This document shows, piece after piece, positions 50,343 through 60,533 of a stretch of DNA of 64,000 nucleotides. The notes beneath the pieces are model-generated. The model was not told the DNA's origin and made no database searches. It was given only the letters and a program-made list of their open reading frames with translations. Positions within the stretch are counted from its first letter, which is position 1. The number at the start of each line of letters is the position of its first letter. The DNA is taken from the NCBI GenBank assembly GCA_944325835.1, contig CALVBO010000004.1, positions 1-64,000 of the forward strand, read 5' to 3'. The position numbers and the translations under genes were made by a program. The stretch comes from Candidatus Gastranaerophilales bacterium (GTDB taxonomy: Bacteria; Cyanobacteriota; Vampirovibrionia; Gastranaerophilales; Gastranaerophilaceae).

Positions 50343-51026
50343 TTATTCCTCAAATAACTGTTTAATGTATTCAAAAGCTTTGTTTGCTTCAAGTGCTTTT
50401 TTCAGCCTAACACAAGATTCGCATACTCCGCAATGTTTTTCAGTATTTTTGTAACAACTGTTTAAGAGGTTTAGGGGTACTTTGTGCATCAGGGCAATGT
50501 GAACGATTTCAACTTTGTCACACTCAATCAGTGGTGCTGTAACCCGCGGTTGAACACGGGTTGAGAATTTAAACTCTTTATTCACGCTGTCTATAAAATC
50601 ACGGGTGTTATCCGGAAACGTTTGCGCTTCTTCTTTGTTTGCACCGATTATAATATTGGTGAAGCCGTCTGCATCAGCAAAAGCGCCTGCAATATTCAAA
50701 AACAATCCGTTGCGGTTTGGAACCCATACTGATTTTGCAGAAGATTCGGGGTTGTTAAGCGCTTCCCCTGACGGAATTTCAGCGTCAGAACATAGCGATG
50801 TACGGGTAATCTCCCTCAGCCAGTCAAGTTTTATAACTTTATGCGTAATTCCGTAATGCTTAGCGATTGCACTTGAGGCTTTAATCTCTTTTTCTGCGGA
50901 TTTTTGTCCGTAGTCAAAGGTCAGGGCAAGGGTAATATTTAATTCTTTTTGAGCCATAGCAAGACTCACAACCGAATCCAGTCCGCCTGAGAGCAGGACT
51001 ATTGATTTAGCTTCTTTTGTTGACAT
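50343..51026 (-). CDS. queC: 7-cyano-7-deazaguanine synthase
   Basis: A 227-residue ATP-dependent enzyme making preQ0 from carboxy-deazaguanine on the queuosine path. The PP-loop SGGLDSVVSLAMA opens the protein. ALTFDYGQKSAEKEIKAS and the zinc site (CYKNTEKHCGVCESCVRLK) follow. The start is ATG 51026 after GAGG, overlapping the HEAT gene by 20 bp. queD, queE and queF are not in the window. Confidence 0.95.
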   Translation of the reverse strand: MSTKEAKSIVLLSGGLDSVVSLAMAQKELNITLALTFDYGQKSAEKEIKASSAIAKHYGITHKVIKLDWLREITRTSLCSDAEIPSGEALNNPESSAKSVWVPNRNGLFLNIAGAFADADGFTNIIIGANKEEAQTFPDNTRDFIDSVNKEFKFSTRVQPRVTAPLIECDKVEIVHIALMHKVPLNLLNSCYKNTEKHCGVCESCVRLKKALEANKAFEYIKQLFEE

Positions 51027-51966
51027 CGTATTCCTCATCTGATTCATATTCGGCAATCAGGTTTTCGGCCTCTTCTTTCAGACTGTCCTGATAAATTGGT
51101 AAACTTATAACCTCATCCAGAATATCGCGGCCATCAAGGTTGTATAGGGCGATTAAAGCATTTTTTCTTACTTCTTCATCCTCATCCTGTAACAGCGGTT
51201 TGATAGTTTCAGAGGCTTTTGGATTTTCACTGTTCATAATCGCTTCTAAAGCAGAAATCCTTATTTGCGAGGATTCGTCTAATAGCGAATTTTTCAGCGC
51301 ATTGAATACAAATTCGCTGTTGCCGAGTTTTAGTTTCCCGAGCGCTTCAATAACGCGTTCTTTAAGGAAAGTAAATCTGTTTAAAATTCCTTTACTGGAG
51401 TTTAAAATGTTCACCAGGGGATCAACGGCGCGTGTGTCCCCTAGAAGTCCAAGTGCGCATGCCGCGGATTCTTTAACATAGACAGAACGTTCATTCTGAT
51501 CCGTAACAACTTCAATTAATGGTGCAACCGCGTATCTGTCACCGAGTTTGCCGAGCGCATCCGCACATGCCAGACGGATTTTGTAATTTTCTTCTTTGTT
51601 GTTAAGGCAATATAACAAAGGCGTTACGGCTGCCGTATTTTTCAGGTGTGCAATAGCTTTTGCACTCATTGCGCGGACATTGATAAAATTCTCTTTTTCT
51701 TCCTGTGAACTTTCAAAATTGTTTTTCATCAACAAAATATCAAGCAGCGCGTCAAGCGTTGAATTATCACGGATTTTGTCGGCACACCGGATTGTGTACA
51801 TCAAAATTTCCGGATTTTTAACGTTGGAAAGTATGTAATTATAAATCAAAACGAGTTCATCGCGGGAATAGTGTTTTTCGAGGGTAATAATCTTTCTGAT
51901 AGAACGCGAAATGTTTTTGAGTTCTATCAGTCCGCATTTTTCCATTATACTCGCAAAATCCAACAT
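51007..51966 (-). CDS. HEAT-repeat protein
   Basis: A 319-residue alpha-solenoid. HEAT/PBS-lyase-like units recur about every 31 residues from residue 100, such as AVTPLLYCLNNKEENYKIRL, ACADALGKLGDRYAVAPLIE and ACALGLLGDTRAVDPLVNIL. It is a protein-interaction scaffold without catalytic residues. The start is ATG 51966 (MLDFASIMEK); the open frame upstream has no ribosome site. It leads an operon with queC. Confidence 0.82.
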   Translation of the reverse strand: MLDFASIMEKCGLIELKNISRSIRKIITLEKHYSRDELVLIYNYILSNVKNPEILMYTIRCADKIRDNSTLDALLDILLMKNNFESSQEEKENFINVRAMSAKAIAHLKNTAAVTPLLYCLNNKEENYKIRLACADALGKLGDRYAVAPLIEVVTDQNERSVYVKESAACALGLLGDTRAVDPLVNILNSSKGILNRFTFLKERVIEALGKLKLGNSEFVFNALKNSLLDESSQIRISALEAIMNSENPKASETIKPLLQDEDEEVRKNALIALYNLDGRDILDEVISLPIYQDSLKEEAENLIAEYESDEEYDVNKRS

Positions 51967-52145
51967 TAATCCGGAAACACCCCTTTTGATTAAGAATATA
52001 CAATAAAGGCGCTTAAAAGGCAAGACGGCAGGTGCTAAATAGAGGGATAGAATAGAAAATTTACAAATCTTAATAAAGTACGCAATTTTTCAGGAAGAAA
52101 AAACTTTATATATGTAAGGTAGGTTATATTTAGGTAGGTAAAATT

Positions 52146-53000
52146 ATGAGTGTAAACGGTGTTTCATCGAATACATTTGGCTCGTACGCAAAGCGTATCG
52201 GCAGGATTTATCTTCACACGACTTTCGGGACGGGTGCGGACGAGTTCTGGGAATCCATGAATAATTCAATATTTGATAAAAAAGCACCGTGGTATGCTCC
52301 TTACCGGAATGCTAATTTTAAAAATTTCGGAGATAAGTTTAAAAAAGCATATCAATCAGTGGAAGCCCATGAAGCGGCTATAAGGAAGGCAAACGGGAAT
52401 AGTTATCTGAAAGCTTTCTGGCATCAGTTTTCAACAATTCCGAAGGTTTTTAAAGATGAATGGAGGCTTGGCGGAGAAGCAGCGAAACGGGCCGGTAAAT
52501 CAGTTGCCGCAGGTAAGGCAAGAGGTGCTTTTAAAGCTCTTATGAAGCGTTTTCCTATGATTGGCGGACTTCTTGCGGTCGGTTTTGAGCTCCCTAATAT
52601 TTTTAGTGCTTTCACAAGTAAGGACGGCGGAGTTGCAACAGGTTTACTTGAAACCGGTAAAGCGGCTGCAAAAATCGGAATTGATACCGCAGGCTTTATG
52701 ATTGGTCAGGCTCTGATACCAATACCGCTGGTCGGAGGTCTTATCGGCAGTATGGTTGCCGGCGCGCTTGGTCAGGCTGTTCTTGGCAAAGGATTTAGTG
52801 AAAAACAAGCCGAGAAAAACGGTGAATCACACCTGCCGGGTTGGCTGCCATATATAGCTCAAAATGGAGAAAACGGACAACAGATTCCTATGCAAGGTTC
52901 CGGCTGGGTACCTCCGCAAGCAACAATGACTGATGAACAGATTTTGCAAATGGCACAGTATATGAATAGCGGCGGTGGATTGAACTACCTTTACGGCTAG
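52146..53000 (+). CDS. Hypothetical protein with glycine-zipper hydrophobic core
   Basis: A 284-residue protein. Start MSVNGVSSNTFGSYAKR has the Asn/Ser-rich, aromatic-Gly character of other orphans here. Middle residues 120-225 hold hydrophobic Gly/Ala segments with small-residue repeats (MIGGLLAVGFELPNIF, LIPIPLVGGLIGSMVAGALG) that could insert in membranes. The C-terminus is Gln/Gly-rich. AGGTAGG precedes the ATG. No family recognised; overall it resembles a secreted or pore-forming protein only in composition. Confidence 0.6.
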   Translation: MSVNGVSSNTFGSYAKRIGRIYLHTTFGTGADEFWESMNNSIFDKKAPWYAPYRNANFKNFGDKFKKAYQSVEAHEAAIRKANGNSYLKAFWHQFSTIPKVFKDEWRLGGEAAKRAGKSVAAGKARGAFKALMKRFPMIGGLLAVGFELPNIFSAFTSKDGGVATGLLETGKAAAKIGIDTAGFMIGQALIPIPLVGGLIGSMVAGALGQAVLGKGFSEKQAEKNGESHLPGWLPYIAQNGENGQQIPMQGSGWVPPQATMTDEQILQMAQYMNSGGGLNYLYG

Positions 53001-55867
53001 CTTTTATAACCTTTCGGGTATTTTAATGCGTTAAATTCTTCCTGCGTTATACCCAGAATTTTACAGACTTCATCTGTGTAAATGCCTTTTTTAAGCAGGG
53101 AAGATGCGTTATAGCCGTTCAGGGCAAGAATAGTTATACGTTTCTTTGCATTGGAATCCGCCGGCAATTCGTGGTAATTTTCAACGCCGCAATATCTTAA
53201 AACATTTCTTATCCGGCGTTTGCAAAGACCTGCGGCAATTTTTGAATTTGAAAGCTGCTGGTTGAATTCATAAGCAGCCTCATCAAAGGCTTTTTGTGCA
53301 TTCGGATCGCCGCCGTTTTCTCTAATCGCCAGAGCTGCATTCGTTTTTTCGGAAAGCGTTTTCATATACCCTGGTGCGTTGAAGGAAACATCAACCAGAG
53401 CTTCAAACTGCCCCTGCGTTAATTTTGACGTATCAATGTTCCTGTTGTTTTGAAGTTTATTTATTGCCTTTACAAGGTCGTATGCAAGTATTTGATACAT
53501 TTCGCTTTCTGAGAGCGTTGCTTTCAGCAGATATTCTCTTTCTTCGCCCTTTGTGCTGTGGAAGTTGTGTCCGATACCGATTGTCAGTTTTTGTGAACTG
53601 CAGTTATAAACAGACGGTCTTACGCCTTCTGTTATTTTCATTTCGTTAAGGTAATCAAGACTTAGTCCGGTTAATTCCGCGATATCGGCAAGGGATTTGA
53701 TATCTTTAAGATTTGAATATTGCCATGAAAAGTTTCCGTATTTTTCGCCTAAAGATATTTCCGGAACATTTGCCCGAACATTTGTCAGCGTTGTAAATCC
53801 GGCATTATTCCCCGAAGCGGTTCCGCGTTCCGGTATTCCGGCAGAAACAGTTGCAAGAAGTTTATTTAATTTGTCTGCCGAAGCCAGACCAAATCCGAAT
53901 AATTCTTTTTCCAGCCTGCTGTTAAAATCGGCAATATTACCCGGATTAACCTTATCTTCCCCTAGTTGTGCAACTAATGAGGATAAAACGTGTAAAATTT
54001 GAGATTGTCTTGTGCTGACATCAGCGCTGCGTTCTTCTATTATCGCGTTAACCGGAGTGTTACCGTCAAATTGCTTCTTGTATTCGTTAATAACTTCACG
54101 GGCATTGCTGCTGTCAATTTTTGATACCCATAATTTAAATGAAATATCATCTGCTGCGCCGTATTTGTCGGAGGCTATATCTTCTATATTTTTTGCAATA
54201 TCTGCCGGCGTTGCTTTTAACATTGAATTGACGACTCGGGTAAGATCTTCTTCATCCGTGATGTTATCCCTTATATACTTTTGAATATCAGATTTTAACA
54301 CTCCGAAAGTTGTGTTGAAATCTTCACCTGCAAATTTTTTCTCGTTTGCAGCCAACAGATTATCCGTAATTGACAGAATATATTCCTGCGCCGCGACCCC
54401 GCCCTTTTCTTGCAGGTATTGGGTGAGCGGTTTGCCCTTTGAAAGTTTATTAAAGGACTCCATAAATTTGACAACATTGTCTTTATTAATACCGTCAAGC
54501 AGATATCGGACAGCTTCTTTGTCAAAATTATCCGTATCATCTGAAAGCTTATCGAACAGTGTCTTGCTCATAAAATCTGTATTTTTATTTTTACCTATGA
54601 CATCCATTAATAATTCCGTGTCGGCAACGGATTCGTTTTTTAAAGACGCATTTACGTGTTCTGTGATTTTTTTGTCTTTAACATATTTACTTGCCTGAAG
54701 CTGTGTTTTGACAATTTTATTAATATAAGATTTTCGGACATCATTATCTCCCCATTCTTCGTCAATCATTGTAAGTAGCGACTTTTTGTCCGGATTTTTC
54801 TCAAACTCTTTTAAGATTTCATTGACATTTGAAGGATTAATTTTATCCAGAAGAATTTTGACATCTGTTCTTGAAAAGGCAAATGAATTGTCATCTATAA
54901 TTTTATAAAGGTTTGCCGCTATATCTTTGGGTTTATTGGTAATAACGGACTCCATAATGCTGTCAAGTTCGTCGATATCGGAGGTGAAGATATTTGAACC
55001 GGTATCGGTTGAATTTAAAATTGACTCTAAACGCTTCTGAACATCCTTCATATACGGCGTGTCTGAGTATCCTGCTGCTTTGAAATAAGAATTTACAAAG
55101 TTTTTAATTTGCGCTTTCTTTTCAGCTTTTTGTTCATCGGAAAACGGTGCGGTGTATTCTTGTGCCAGAATTCGCAATAAAGATTCATTTCCGCTGTTGC
55201 CTTTATATTGTTTAACCTGCTGCGCAACAGAAATAGCGTTGCCTGAGTCAATTGAATCTAATAAATATCTGAAATCTTTATCCGCGTAGGAAAAACTGTT
55301 GTCATCTATATGATCATAAATTTCCCGAGCCAGTTCAGTTGAATTCGCGGTATACATTTTTTGCATTTTGGCAACGATTTCATTGACTTTGGAGGTTGAA
55401 ATTCCCCATTCAAACCAGCTGTCGTCAAGTTCTTCCGTAACTACCTGATTGAATTCTTTTTTCAGTGTTGCAAGTTCTGCTTTTTGATCGTCTGTTTTAG
55501 CACCTGACAAAACTTTATTATATAAAATTTCAAAAGTTTTTATTGCTCCGTTTTTTCGTTGCTCACGCGGAATTTCATCCTCTTTAATAAAATCCCCGAG
55601 CAGGGTTTTACCCTCATGATCTTTTTCATAATTCTCAATAACTGTAAGAATATTGCGGGTGTTTAGAACTGTTTGAGGTGTGCGTAAAACTTTTACATCA
55701 TTGATTTTTACAACAAGTTGAGCCGGCTTGTAATTAGCTTTAGCCTTGTTGAAAGCAATGACTTCCTTGCCCTCAAGAATACCTTTTTTACCGCCGGTAT
55801 CGTATTTTTTCGCTAATTCCCGTAATCCTGCGTCTTTGATATCTGCAATTCTTATGCTTTTAGGCAC
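52997..55867 (-). CDS. Large repeat protein with C-terminal GH24 lysozyme
   Basis: A 956-residue protein. Residues about 170-660 contain four related helical units of 120-130 residues, marked by DDNSFSYADKDFRYLLDSID, DDNSFAFSRTDVKILLDKIN, SDDTDNFDKEAVRYLLDGIN and ISFKLWVSKID. A LysM-like or linker stretch precedes a GH24 (T4-type) lysozyme domain (about 740-890). The catalytic Glu of TEGVRPSVYNC is followed, at the canonical spacing, by Cys and then Thr (KLTIGIGH). No signal peptide is seen. It should cut peptidoglycan; the repeats are unknown. Confidence 0.82.
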   Translation of the reverse strand: MPKSIRIADIKDAGLRELAKKYDTGGKKGILEGKEVIAFNKAKANYKPAQLVVKINDVKVLRTPQTVLNTRNILTVIENYEKDHEGKTLLGDFIKEDEIPREQRKNGAIKTFEILYNKVLSGAKTDDQKAELATLKKEFNQVVTEELDDSWFEWGISTSKVNEIVAKMQKMYTANSTELAREIYDHIDDNSFSYADKDFRYLLDSIDSGNAISVAQQVKQYKGNSGNESLLRILAQEYTAPFSDEQKAEKKAQIKNFVNSYFKAAGYSDTPYMKDVQKRLESILNSTDTGSNIFTSDIDELDSIMESVITNKPKDIAANLYKIIDDNSFAFSRTDVKILLDKINPSNVNEILKEFEKNPDKKSLLTMIDEEWGDNDVRKSYINKIVKTQLQASKYVKDKKITEHVNASLKNESVADTELLMDVIGKNKNTDFMSKTLFDKLSDDTDNFDKEAVRYLLDGINKDNVVKFMESFNKLSKGKPLTQYLQEKGGVAAQEYILSITDNLLAANEKKFAGEDFNTTFGVLKSDIQKYIRDNITDEEDLTRVVNSMLKATPADIAKNIEDIASDKYGAADDISFKLWVSKIDSSNAREVINEYKKQFDGNTPVNAIIEERSADVSTRQSQILHVLSSLVAQLGEDKVNPGNIADFNSRLEKELFGFGLASADKLNKLLATVSAGIPERGTASGNNAGFTTLTNVRANVPEISLGEKYGNFSWQYSNLKDIKSLADIAELTGLSLDYLNEMKITEGVRPSVYNCSSQKLTIGIGHNFHSTKGEEREYLLKATLSESEMYQILAYDLVKAINKLQNNRNIDTSKLTQGQFEALVDVSFNAPGYMKTLSEKTNAALAIRENGGDPNAQKAFDEAAYEFNQQLSNSKIAAGLCKRRIRNVLRYCGVENYHELPADSNAKKRITILALNGYNASSLLKKGIYTDEVCKILGITQEEFNALKYPKGYKS

Positions 55868-59294: not shown

Positions 59295-60533
59295 CTATGA
59301 ACTGAATGTTTTGAATGTGCTTTCGACGTTCTTTTCAATAACTTTTGCAACGGCTTCCATTTCGGTTTGGAGAGCTTGTTGCTCTGTATCTAACTGTCTT
59401 AGACGCAGCTCAAGTGTTCTGTCTTCTTCCTGAATAATTTCAGTTTTTGCGTTGATATCTTGTACTGCTTTTTCGTATTGAGCTTTTTCATACTCATATT
59501 GATTCATTGCGTCTTGATATGCGGCCTGATCGGTTATTGTTTCTGTTTGCAGCGCAAACGTTGCAGAGGAATTTTCAAAATGTATTGATGTTGCCCTGCC
59601 GGAGTCATCAAATTCAATGAAAGCCTTATCCGTTGATGAAATCTTTGTTTTAACACCTTCTGCGTAATAGGTATTAAGATTTGACTGATATTCACTCGGA
59701 TTTGCAGCGTTCATTGAGGAATTCGCGCTTGCCATAAGTTCTTCTTCGGTAACAAAATAGGTTCTGCCATAAGATTCGTATGTATAAATGCTGTCAGCCG
59801 TTGCTATTGGATCATCCGGATTATCTTTTCTTATTTGTTCCAGAGATAAATCCAGTTCTTTGTCCTGACCTTCAACATATTTTTTGAGTTCGTTGTTGCC
59901 AACATAGGTCGGAACAATACCTTCTATTGAGTAATCAACAACGTCACCCGCGCCGAGTGTTGTCATATCAAGGAAGTGCATAACCTGATTTTCGTCGGTG
60001 TAAATACCAAGGTTTTCTTCTTCAATTGCAGCGAGTTCAGGATATTCTTCTTTGAGAATATCATATCTTGATTTTTCTTCCACGCTGTCAGGATTGTAGG
60101 CTGTAACCTGGTTGTCGTTAATGGTGTAAACGCCTTCCTCTTCAATGACTTCATCTGCCGGAGTGGTGGTTGTTGTCATATCGTAACCGGTTCTTACCTG
60201 CGGGTTAACTTTTGTATTACGAACACCGGTGAATACATCGGAGTAGTGGTAATGGGTTACAAGATAGTTGTAATCAGAAGATTCATCAGCGAGTTCGGTC
60301 ATTTCTTCGATTGCTTCTTCAATGTTGCCGTCCTCGTATGTGTATTGAATGGTTGTATAATCCTGAGTACTAGGTGCAGTAGGCACTTCAAGCGCTAAAT
60401 ACTGGTTAAACGCGTCTGCGCTCTGGTTAGCAAGTGCAGTTCTTTCCTGGTTAATTTGTTGTCCTTCATATTCAACGTTTGTTTTTCTTGCTGTTAATGC
60501 CAAATATCTCGCTTGTGATGCTGCCATACCCAT
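59295..60533 (-). CDS. Large acidic protein of the QYL family
   Basis: A 412-residue acidic protein. N-terminus: MGMAASQARYLALTARKTNV followed by EYEGQQINQE, the pattern shared with the 107-residue protein at 56653. The middle (50-330) is Glu/Asp/Thr/Tyr-rich; the C-terminus (about 335-405) is a long coiled coil. GGAGAG precedes the ATG. It starts the two-gene unit with the Gly/Ser-rich gene. No signal peptide; possibly a structural or secreted component. Confidence 0.65.
   Translation of the reverse strand: MGMAASQARYLALTARKTNVEYEGQQINQERTALANQSADAFNQYLALEVPTAPSTQDYTTIQYTYEDGNIEEAIEEMTELADESSDYNYLVTHYHYSDVFTGVRNTKVNPQVRTGYDMTTTTTPADEVIEEEGVYTINDNQVTAYNPDSVEEKSRYDILKEEYPELAAIEEENLGIYTDENQVMHFLDMTTLGAGDVVDYSIEGIVPTYVGNNELKKYVEGQDKELDLSLEQIRKDNPDDPIATADSIYTYESYGRTYFVTEEELMASANSSMNAANPSEYQSNLNTYYAEGVKTKISSTDKAFIEFDDSGRATSIHFENSSATFALQTETITDQAAYQDAMNQYEYEKAQYEKAVQDINAKTEIIQEEDRTLELRLRQLDTEQQALQTEMEAVAKVIEKNVESTFKTFSS

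What the first reader, a model, noticed from the sequence alone, without database searches (positions are those of the whole stretch)
52997..55867. 956-residue protein with four novel helical repeats and a lysozyme
Four units of about 125 residues (marked DDNSF...YLLDSID/INxxN) precede a GH24 domain with an E-C-T catalytic set at T4-type spacing. A phage-type muramidase fused to a long repeat scaffold with no signal peptide, in a non-phage context, is unusual; it could be an envelope remodelling enzyme, secreted effector or domesticated endolysin.
Basis: partly seen in the sequence, partly recalled or inferred. Interest (0 to 1): 0.55.

Follow-up and report, generated by a model that had tools for sequence, protein, structure and literature searches.

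The report
Annexin-like repeats fused to a muramidase
A gut relative of the cyanobacteria makes a protein in which five repeats related to the animal membrane-binding annexins precede an enzyme that probably cuts bacterial cell wall; it belongs to a varied, lineage-specific set of annexin-like proteins, several with toxin-like or cell-wall-cutting ends.

Summary
The ORF is real: minus strand, 956 aa, GTG start. The repeats are homologous, but there are five (aa 47-677), not four, and the fold is not new: they are divergent annexin-type repeats, each with two extra helices. The predicted structure of unit 3 (pLDDT 85.6) gives annexin-type chains in all 50 listed matches (Z 7.8-9.2; three by recall). 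A relative found by the repeat profile matches annexin VI at 6.3e-10, summed over its repeats. Profile comparison with canonical annexins beats 200 of 200 shuffles. The window units lack the GxGTD calcium motif, so I do not file the protein as a canonical annexin.

The GH24 domain has E747-C756-T762. The locus is syntenic and not a prophage. On a tree the domain lies with bacterial LysM/amidase-linked GH24s, apart from 11 phage-type ones.

In a phylum sample, 119 of 120 genomes with the repeat belong to one bacterial family. Partner domains include LysM, amidase, GH24, calpain-like protease and ADP-ribosyltransferase. None of 39 members tested shows a hydrophobic N-terminus.

Most likely: a leaderless, membrane-docking cell-wall hydrolase or effector. 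Export by this genome's flagellin-less type III apparatus is plausible but unproven.

The parts
52997..55867 (-). 956-aa protein: short N-terminal region, five annexin-like units, linker (about aa 678-735), GH24 domain, about 70-aa C-terminal tail
   Evidence: full-length orthologues in 4 of 6 other same-genus genomes
55730..55867 (-). N-terminal 46 aa, no hydrophobic segment; replaced by a different S/N/K-rich stretch in two orthologues
55355..55729 (-). unit 1 (aa 47-171), degenerate, lacks the usual start
   Evidence: i-E 2.9e-24 (self-inclusive profile)
54935..55345 (-). unit 2 (aa 175-311)
   Evidence: i-E 1e-31 (self-inclusive profile)
54578..54934 (-). unit 3 (aa 312-430); residues 1-79 of the model superpose on annexin repeats, the rest forms two extra helices
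   Evidence: i-E 9.2e-34 (self-inclusive profile)
54212..54583 (-). unit 4 (aa 429-552)
   Evidence: i-E 1.8e-30 (self-inclusive profile)
53837..54211 (-). unit 5 (aa 553-677)
   Evidence: i-E 3.1e-36 (self-inclusive profile)
53213..53632 (-). GH24 domain (aa 746-885), catalytic set E747, C756, T762

Best explanation
The gene encodes a leaderless, annexin-like, membrane-docking muramidase. Shown by computation: five tandem homologous units, modelled (unit 3) as an annexin-type five-helix core plus two extra helices, precede a GH24 domain with an intact E-C-T set. Inferred: the repeat array forms a stiff arc that docks on lipid bilayers or partner proteins without the canonical calcium sites and holds the GH24 domain against peptidoglycan, where it cuts the glycan strand. 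Inferred: because a wall enzyme has no substrate in the cytoplasm and no tested member has a Sec-like leader, the protein leaves the cell by a non-Sec route. The flagellin-less type III export apparatus of this genome is the leading candidate. It acts on another cell's wall, or on its own during export or lysis.
For: Repeat identity: the A1 repeat profile finds G018:C2:98291-98650 at 5.1e-18, and that unit (L112) matches PDB annexin VI at 6.3e-10 and annexin IV at 6.5e-9 (whole-chain E-values, summed over the repeats of the chain). A1 against nine canonical annexin units of the same bacterial family: probability 90.1, E 1.6e-6, in annexin register; 0 of 200 column shuffles reach it, and window and orthologue rows alone still give E 1.1e-4. 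AF2 of unit 3: pLDDT 85.6, pTM 0.80, seven helices; all 50 listed VIA-align rows are annexin-type (47 named so, three MAGI-1 entries recalled as annexin A2 fusions). Enzyme: PF00959 over cut-off; E-C-T in the window protein and its 4 orthologues. Family logic: of 28 of 40 family proteins scanned with Pfam, over-cut-off partners include LysM 10, Amidase_3 6, GH24 5, calpain protease 3, ADP-ribosyltransferase 1. Export: 0 of 39 members have a hydrophobic N-terminal stretch above 2.0. The genome has FliE, YscJ/FliF, FliH and FlhA together, FlhB on another contig, and no flagellin match.
Against: Pfam Annexin does not match the window protein, and 0 of 5 window units have GxGTD. In one search no single stretch of annexin VI or of most annexin IV chains passed E 1 on its own, though one did in annexin V and a few others. 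Of 16 proteins with Pfam-annexin matches, 11 gave no A1 match. The full-length model is poor (pLDDT 54.5), so neither the arc nor the GH24 fold was seen. Nothing was measured. The type III link is co-occurrence only, and FHIPEP is as common in other families of the order, where the repeat was not seen. The window N-terminus is not Ser/Thr/Asn-rich (0.07, below the background median of 0.17).
Confidence: 0.55

Rival explanations
1. It is a self-directed envelope enzyme: a periplasmic or secretion-linked autolysin that opens the cell's own peptidoglycan (for growth, division or assembly of the export apparatus), with the repeats only as scaffold.
For: Conserved locus among housekeeping-like genes in the genus; relatives carry amidase and GH24 as adjacent genes or fused, as a wall-remodelling set might.
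Against: No hydrophobic leader in any of the 39 family proteins tested; the gene is absent from the syntenic locus of G006 and was not found in G005, so it is dispensable; the repeat also partners proteases and an ADP-ribosyltransferase.
Confidence: 0.22
2. It is a lysis-from-within protein: it accumulates in the cytoplasm and acts only when the membrane fails, releasing cell contents.
For: No leader by hydropathy; muramidase domain.
Against: No holin or spanin family among the nine neighbouring proteins scanned; does not explain LysM and the varied partners in relatives.
Confidence: 0.12
3. It is a domesticated phage endolysin fused to a host scaffold.
For: PF00959 and a PHROG endolysin match; E-C-T as in the resident prophage endolysin; the convergent neighbour 52146-53000 has weak PHROG matches (3.8e-4 and 0.0017).
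Against: Tree: 11 phage-type GH24s, resident prophage included, split at 99/99 from 23 bacterial ones that include the window clade, though the window clade sits on a long branch and the root is only a midpoint; best phage match 5e-6, in 4 of 50,697 records; no close relative in viral contigs; conserved locus in four other genomes.
Confidence: 0.05
4. The repeats are a generic helical solenoid and the annexin resemblance is convergent.
For: Low identity (8-17 percent in the structural alignment); middling Z is common for helical models (note); no Pfam annexin match in the window.
Against: Intermediate members carry GxGTD and match annexins directly; shuffled and reversed profiles score about half the observed value or less; no clearly non-annexin chain in the 50 listed rows.
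Confidence: 0.06

Closest known systems
Bacterial annexins (Kodavali et al. 2014, PMC3894181)
   Same: Annexin-type repeats in bacteria, variable repeat number including one protein with five, some fused to enzyme or toxin domains (abstract, passages and sections 6 and 7 read).
   Different: Those were found in Bacteroidetes/Chlorobi, Gemmatimonadetes, beta- and delta-Proteobacteria and Actinobacteria and mostly keep GxGTD or part of it; the main text has no 'lysozyme' or 'cyanobacter'. The units here lack GxGTD and carry about 40 extra residues.
Annexin domains of PVC-type (contractile injection) toxins (Zhang et al. 2012, PMC3482391)
   Same: Annexin domain ahead of an enzymatic toxin domain; proposed there to help breach target membranes (two passages read).
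   Different: Those have a single annexin domain (Haliangium is named); this genome has no Phage_sheath_1 match and the protein has five units.
GH24 muramidases (T4, P1-type and LysM-linked)
   Same: Pfam match over cut-off and E-x8-C-x5-T catalytic set.
   Different: Lies with bacterial members apart from phage-type ones; fused to annexin-like repeats.
Eukaryotic annexins and giardins
   Same: Five-helix core of the unit 3 model superposes at 1.6-2.1 Å.
   Different: No type II calcium motif in the window units; five long units instead of four of about 70 aa; a catalytic domain attached.

Membership tests
Annexin (canonical) | Five-helix (A-E) annexin repeat fold | tested here: met
   AF2 unit 3, residues 1-79; all 50 listed rows annexin-type, Z 7.8-9.2, three of them by recall. 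Only this unit was modelled well
Annexin (canonical) | Sequence homology to annexin repeats | tested here: met
   Through family members: L112 vs PDB 6.3e-10, summed over repeats; A1 vs A2 E 1.6e-6 with shuffle control. Direct Pfam match of the window protein: none
[quoted passage not shown]
   0 of 5 window units; 3 of 63 units of the wider family. Hence filed as annexin-like, not as a canonical annexin
Annexin (canonical) | Repeat of about 70 residues in sets of four | tested here: not met
   Five units of 119-137 aa
Annexin (canonical) | Calcium-dependent phospholipid binding | not testable with these tools
   needs protein
GH24 muramidase | PF00959 above curated cut-off | tested here: met
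   51 bits against 22.3
GH24 muramidase | E-x8-(D/C)-x5-T catalytic set | tested here: met
   E747, C756, T762; same in the 4 orthologues. That C can stand for D is recalled from P1-type lysozymes; the prophage copy L063 and seven of the ten further copies also show C
GH24 muramidase | Lysozyme fold | tested here: inconclusive
   Full-length model too poor there
GH24 muramidase | Muramidase activity | not testable with these tools
   needs assay
Phage endolysin | Phage lysis-gene context | tested here: not met
   Same flanks in G001-G004; among nine neighbours scanned only weak PHROG matches, best 3.8e-4; contrast the L063 prophage
Phage endolysin | Groups with phage GH24s | tested here: not met
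   Split at 99/99; midpoint root
PVC-type or polymorphic toxin | Annexin-type part followed by an exchangeable enzyme | tested here: met
   Met in the window protein and many relatives (amidase, GH24, calpain, ADP-ribosyltransferase); but L111 and L112 have no known domain after the unit
PVC-type or polymorphic toxin | Contractile injection apparatus in the genome | tested here: not met
   No PF04984 match in G000; one model only
PVC-type or polymorphic toxin | Adjacent immunity gene | tested here: inconclusive
   Convergent neighbour 52146-53000 is kept in G006 without the enzyme gene, so it is not a strict partner
Type III secretion substrate | Export by the apparatus | not testable with these tools
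   Apparatus genes present; needs experiment

The most novel reading that the evidence does not exclude
Gastranaerophilaceae carry a large, lineage-specific set of effectors built on a calcium-site-free, seven-helix annexin-like module that docks on or helps cross target membranes, exported without leaders by a flagellum-derived, flagellin-less type III apparatus; the window protein is the wall-cutting member.
Probability: 0.25. Interest if true: 0.8.

Novelty: new variant of a known kind. Interest (0 to 1): 0.58.

Why it matters
Bacterial annexins were described as few and patchy (about 30 in 17 species in the 2014 survey), and that survey warned that more diverged ones without GxGTD could have been missed. 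Here a family of gut bacteria holds both canonical and strongly diverged annexin-like repeats, the latter tied to wall hydrolases and toxin-like enzymes. It gives material to ask where annexins came from, what an annexin fold does without calcium sites, and how leaderless cell-wall enzymes leave these cells.

Tried and rejected
Repeat profile A1 against PDB sequences: nothing significant (best gasdermin-B, E 0.021), so the link to annexins needed intermediate members. A1 members against Pfam: Annexin in 1 of 41 at 0.0037, DUF6043 in 2 at best 6.3e-5, no consistent family. Full-length AF2 with three rows: too poor for a fold search. Foldseek alone: annexins first and second but E 0.71 or worse. 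Viral contigs: no relative of the whole protein, by a scan that finds close relatives only; the profile scan could not run. A contractile system as export route: no sheath match. A second FlhB match at C1:81078 is over Pfam's cut-off (27.7 bits) but by eye I read that frame as an ordinary membrane protein. The convergent neighbour as immunity or holin partner: kept where the enzyme gene is missing. Literature: listings for Melainabacteria with annexin, Gastranaerophilales or Vampirovibrionia with type III secretion, and annexin with GH24, lysozyme or contractile injection showed few papers or none that looked relevant; apart from PMC3482391, PMC5877343 and PMC4451040 (passages) I opened none of them, so they may hold more. 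Rows dropped: L104, L119 and L120 were fetched but my gene calls gave no protein that the profile matched, so they are not among the 40 proteins; one search used 39, without L062, which is cut by its contig end; 12 of the 40 were not scanned with Pfam. Genomes without a match were not all listed, so I give no total of family genomes for them. Nothing outside the phylum was searched with the repeat.
Full report
What is there. The ORF at 52997-55867 is on the minus strand and encodes 956 aa from a GTG start. The genome has 1.95 Mb in 44 contigs. So the window is from a non-photosynthetic gut relative of the cyanobacteria. Full-length orthologues (62-92 percent identity) were found in 4 of 6 other genomes of the genus (G001-G004). 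In all four the flanking genes are the same; I read them by eye as bacterial housekeeping or hypothetical genes. In G006 the two neighbouring genes lie side by side with the gene absent between them; G005 keeps only the right-hand flank in the stretch read. So the gene is a conserved but dispensable part of the locus.

The repeats. An iterative profile finds five units in the window protein (aa 47-171, 175-311, 312-430, 429-552, 553-677) and 46 units in 24 proteins among the first loci fetched. One asparagine is invariant in the 41-row alignment A1. By phmmer of single units, unit 3 matches units 2, 5 and 4 at 2.3e-7, 2.9e-6 and 0.0028, and unit 1 not significantly; unit 1 matches relative L043 at 8.5e-7.

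They are annexin-type. Direct Pfam and PDB sequence searches with the window protein or A1 do not show this. Intermediates do. The A1 profile finds a unit in G018 at 5.1e-18. That unit (L112, not in A1) carries GWGTDE and matches solved annexin VI at 6.3e-10, annexin IV at 6.5e-9 and annexin V at 3.8e-7; these are whole-chain values summed over several repeats, and for annexin VI no single stretch passes E 1. It matches Pfam Annexin at 5.7e-4, below the cut-off. Pfam Annexin searched in 191 genomes of the same bacterial family matches 50 at E <= 0.01 and 16 over the cut-off, best 3.3e-16; the window's genome has none. At G018:C2:98303, G013:C2:50023 and G175:C3:10148 its matches fall inside A1 units, all three below the cut-off. 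Of 16 proteins called at Pfam-annexin places, L157 is itself an A1 member, four more (L149, L150, L151, L154) match A1 at 5.1e-15 to 5.4e-8, and 11 give no A1 match (E-values for 16 sequences). hhalign of A1 against nine canonical units gives probability 90.1 and E 1.6e-6 over 60 columns in the expected register. In 200 column shuffles the best score was 17.3 against 36.2, and the reversed profile gave 18.7. Using only the window and orthologue rows the result is weaker (probability 57, E 1.1e-4); using only the other members it is 85.5 and 5.6e-6.

Structure. AF2 of unit 3 with 15 rows from the window, L100 and L101 gives pLDDT 85.6 and pTM 0.80, with seven helices. Foldseek ranks annexin A13a first but with E 0.71. 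VIA-align lists 50 rows, Z 7.8-9.2, rmsd 1.6-2.1 Å over 73-83 residues, mostly model residues 1-79. Of these, 47 are named annexin, giardin or annexin fusion; three MAGI-1 entries I recall as annexin A2 fusions. The tool warns that such Z values can be reached by chance for helical models, so the case rests on the uniform identity of the rows together with the sequence chain. The rest of the unit is two extra helices. The full-length model is poor (54.5), although its helix pattern repeats in a similar way.

Calcium. None of the five window units has GxGT[DEKNS] in its first 45 aa; 3 of 63 units of the wider family do. Kodavali et al. call GxGTD the most characteristic annexin motif and warn that diverged homologues without it may have been missed (section 7 read). 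I therefore call these units annexin-like and do not file the protein as a canonical annexin.

The enzyme. The GH24 domain (aa 746-885) is over Pfam's cut-off. E747, C756 and T762 are kept in the window protein and its four orthologues. Of the 19 other GH24s aligned, 16 have E-D-T, the prophage copy has E-C-T, L037 has lost the third residue and L045 the second and third. On a 34-row tree, 11 phage-type GH24s are split at 99/99 from 23 others, which hold the 5-row window clade and 18 bacterial relatives. The 11 are eight named phages, the prophage copy L063, and two small GH24 ORFs (L027, L028) whose surroundings I did not examine. The root is a midpoint, and the window clade sits on a long branch. 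L063 lies among baseplate, tail and fibre proteins by PHROGs, so I read it as the endolysin of a prophage. Phage records match the window GH24 at 5e-6 or worse in 4 of 50,697 records.

The family. In a phylum sample of 386 genomes, 120 match A1; 119 are in the window's family (own genome included), one outside at 7.4e-6. Nothing outside the phylum was searched. Of the 40 family proteins, 28 were scanned with Pfam (window included). Matches over cut-off are LysM 10, Amidase_3 6, GH24 5, calpain-type protease 3, EF-hand 3, FHA 2, RamC_N 2, ADP-ribosyltransferase 1, HD 1 and a probably spurious Bcr-Abl_Oligo 1; several have none. In five loci the GH24 is a separate gene next to an annexin-like gene (L042, L046, L050, L052, L114); that neighbour carries Amidase_3 by Pfam in the two scanned (L042, L050) and by eye in the others.

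Export. None of 39 family proteins has a 15-residue stretch above 2.0 on the Kyte-Doolittle scale in its first 45 aa; the 90th percentile is 0.55 against 2.61 for 320 other proteins. Starts were taken as the first possible codon. Family N-termini are richer in S, T and N (median 0.23 against 0.17, p 0.003, relatedness not corrected), but the window protein is not (0.07). G000 has FHIPEP/FlhA beside FliE, YscJ/FliF and FliH, FlhB on another contig, and no flagellin match; flagellin is missing in 7 of 7 genomes of the genus searched (drafts). Among G000-G035, 13 of 36 family genomes have flagellin, while all 36 have FHIPEP. Earlier papers report partial or lost flagellar gene sets in Gastranaerophilales (passages). 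A type III export role for the family is my inference. FHIPEP is as common in other families of the order, where the repeat was not seen, so co-occurrence proves nothing.

Closest precedent. Zhang et al. 2012 note annexin domains in PVC-delivered toxins, always followed by an enzymatic domain, and suggest that they help breach target membranes (passages). This genome has no Phage_sheath_1 match. The searches listed no paper that looked to report annexin-muramidase fusions or annexins in this lineage; they cover open-licence papers only, and most hits were seen as listings.

Verdict. The most likely function is a leaderless, membrane-docking muramidase; its target is open. It is a new variant of a known kind, with most of the interest in the family-wide set.

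Noticed in passing
G000:C3, L170:10152-15000 and L171:1-1311: FliE, YscJ/FliF, FliH and FlhA genes together in a genome without a flagellin match; may be a reduced flagellar or non-flagellar type III apparatus.
   Followed up: partly
window 59295-60533 (-) and L171:1806-5574 (-): The 412-aa neighbour and two proteins beside FlhA share an MG(M/L)xASQAR N-terminus by eye; possible substrates or filament parts of that apparatus.
   Followed up: no
G000:C6, L063:9869-19816: Prophage stretch with baseplate, tail and fibre proteins and a separate 150-aa GH24 endolysin with E-C-T.
   Followed up: partly
G000:C1:85155-88793 (L116:2156-5794): Second member in this genome: 1212 aa, one weak annexin-like unit (2.7e-4) and a LysM match below cut-off.
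   Followed up: partly
L173:4273-5860 (G006): Syntenic locus without the 956-aa gene: the two flanking genes lie about 100 bases apart.
   Followed up: yes
window 52146-53000 (+): Convergent 284-aa gene overlapping the 956-aa gene by 4 bases, with a hydrophobic glycine-rich stretch; weak PHROG matches (3.8e-4 unknown function, 0.0017 tail lysin); kept in G006 without its neighbour.
   Followed up: partly
window 51007-52023 (-): HEAT-repeat protein whose best NCBIfam matches, far below cut-off, are phycobilin lyase CpcE and NblB, in a lineage that I recall as non-photosynthetic.
   Followed up: no
window 55730-55867 (-): The N-terminal stretch DTGGKKGILEGKE (DKDGKKGILEGQE in G004) looks by eye like a decayed EF-hand loop; some relatives have Pfam EF-hands at the same end.
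   Followed up: no
L061:5578-11106, L103:681-7943: 1842- and 2420-aa relatives: L061 ends in an ADP-ribosyltransferase domain (1.1e-14) with FHA; L103 has HD by Pfam and, by eye only, further FHA-, kinase- and ADP-ribosyltransferase-like parts.
   Followed up: partly
L142-L144: Canonical GxGTD annexin repeats, four in L143 (686 aa), in other genomes of the same bacterial family.
   Followed up: partly
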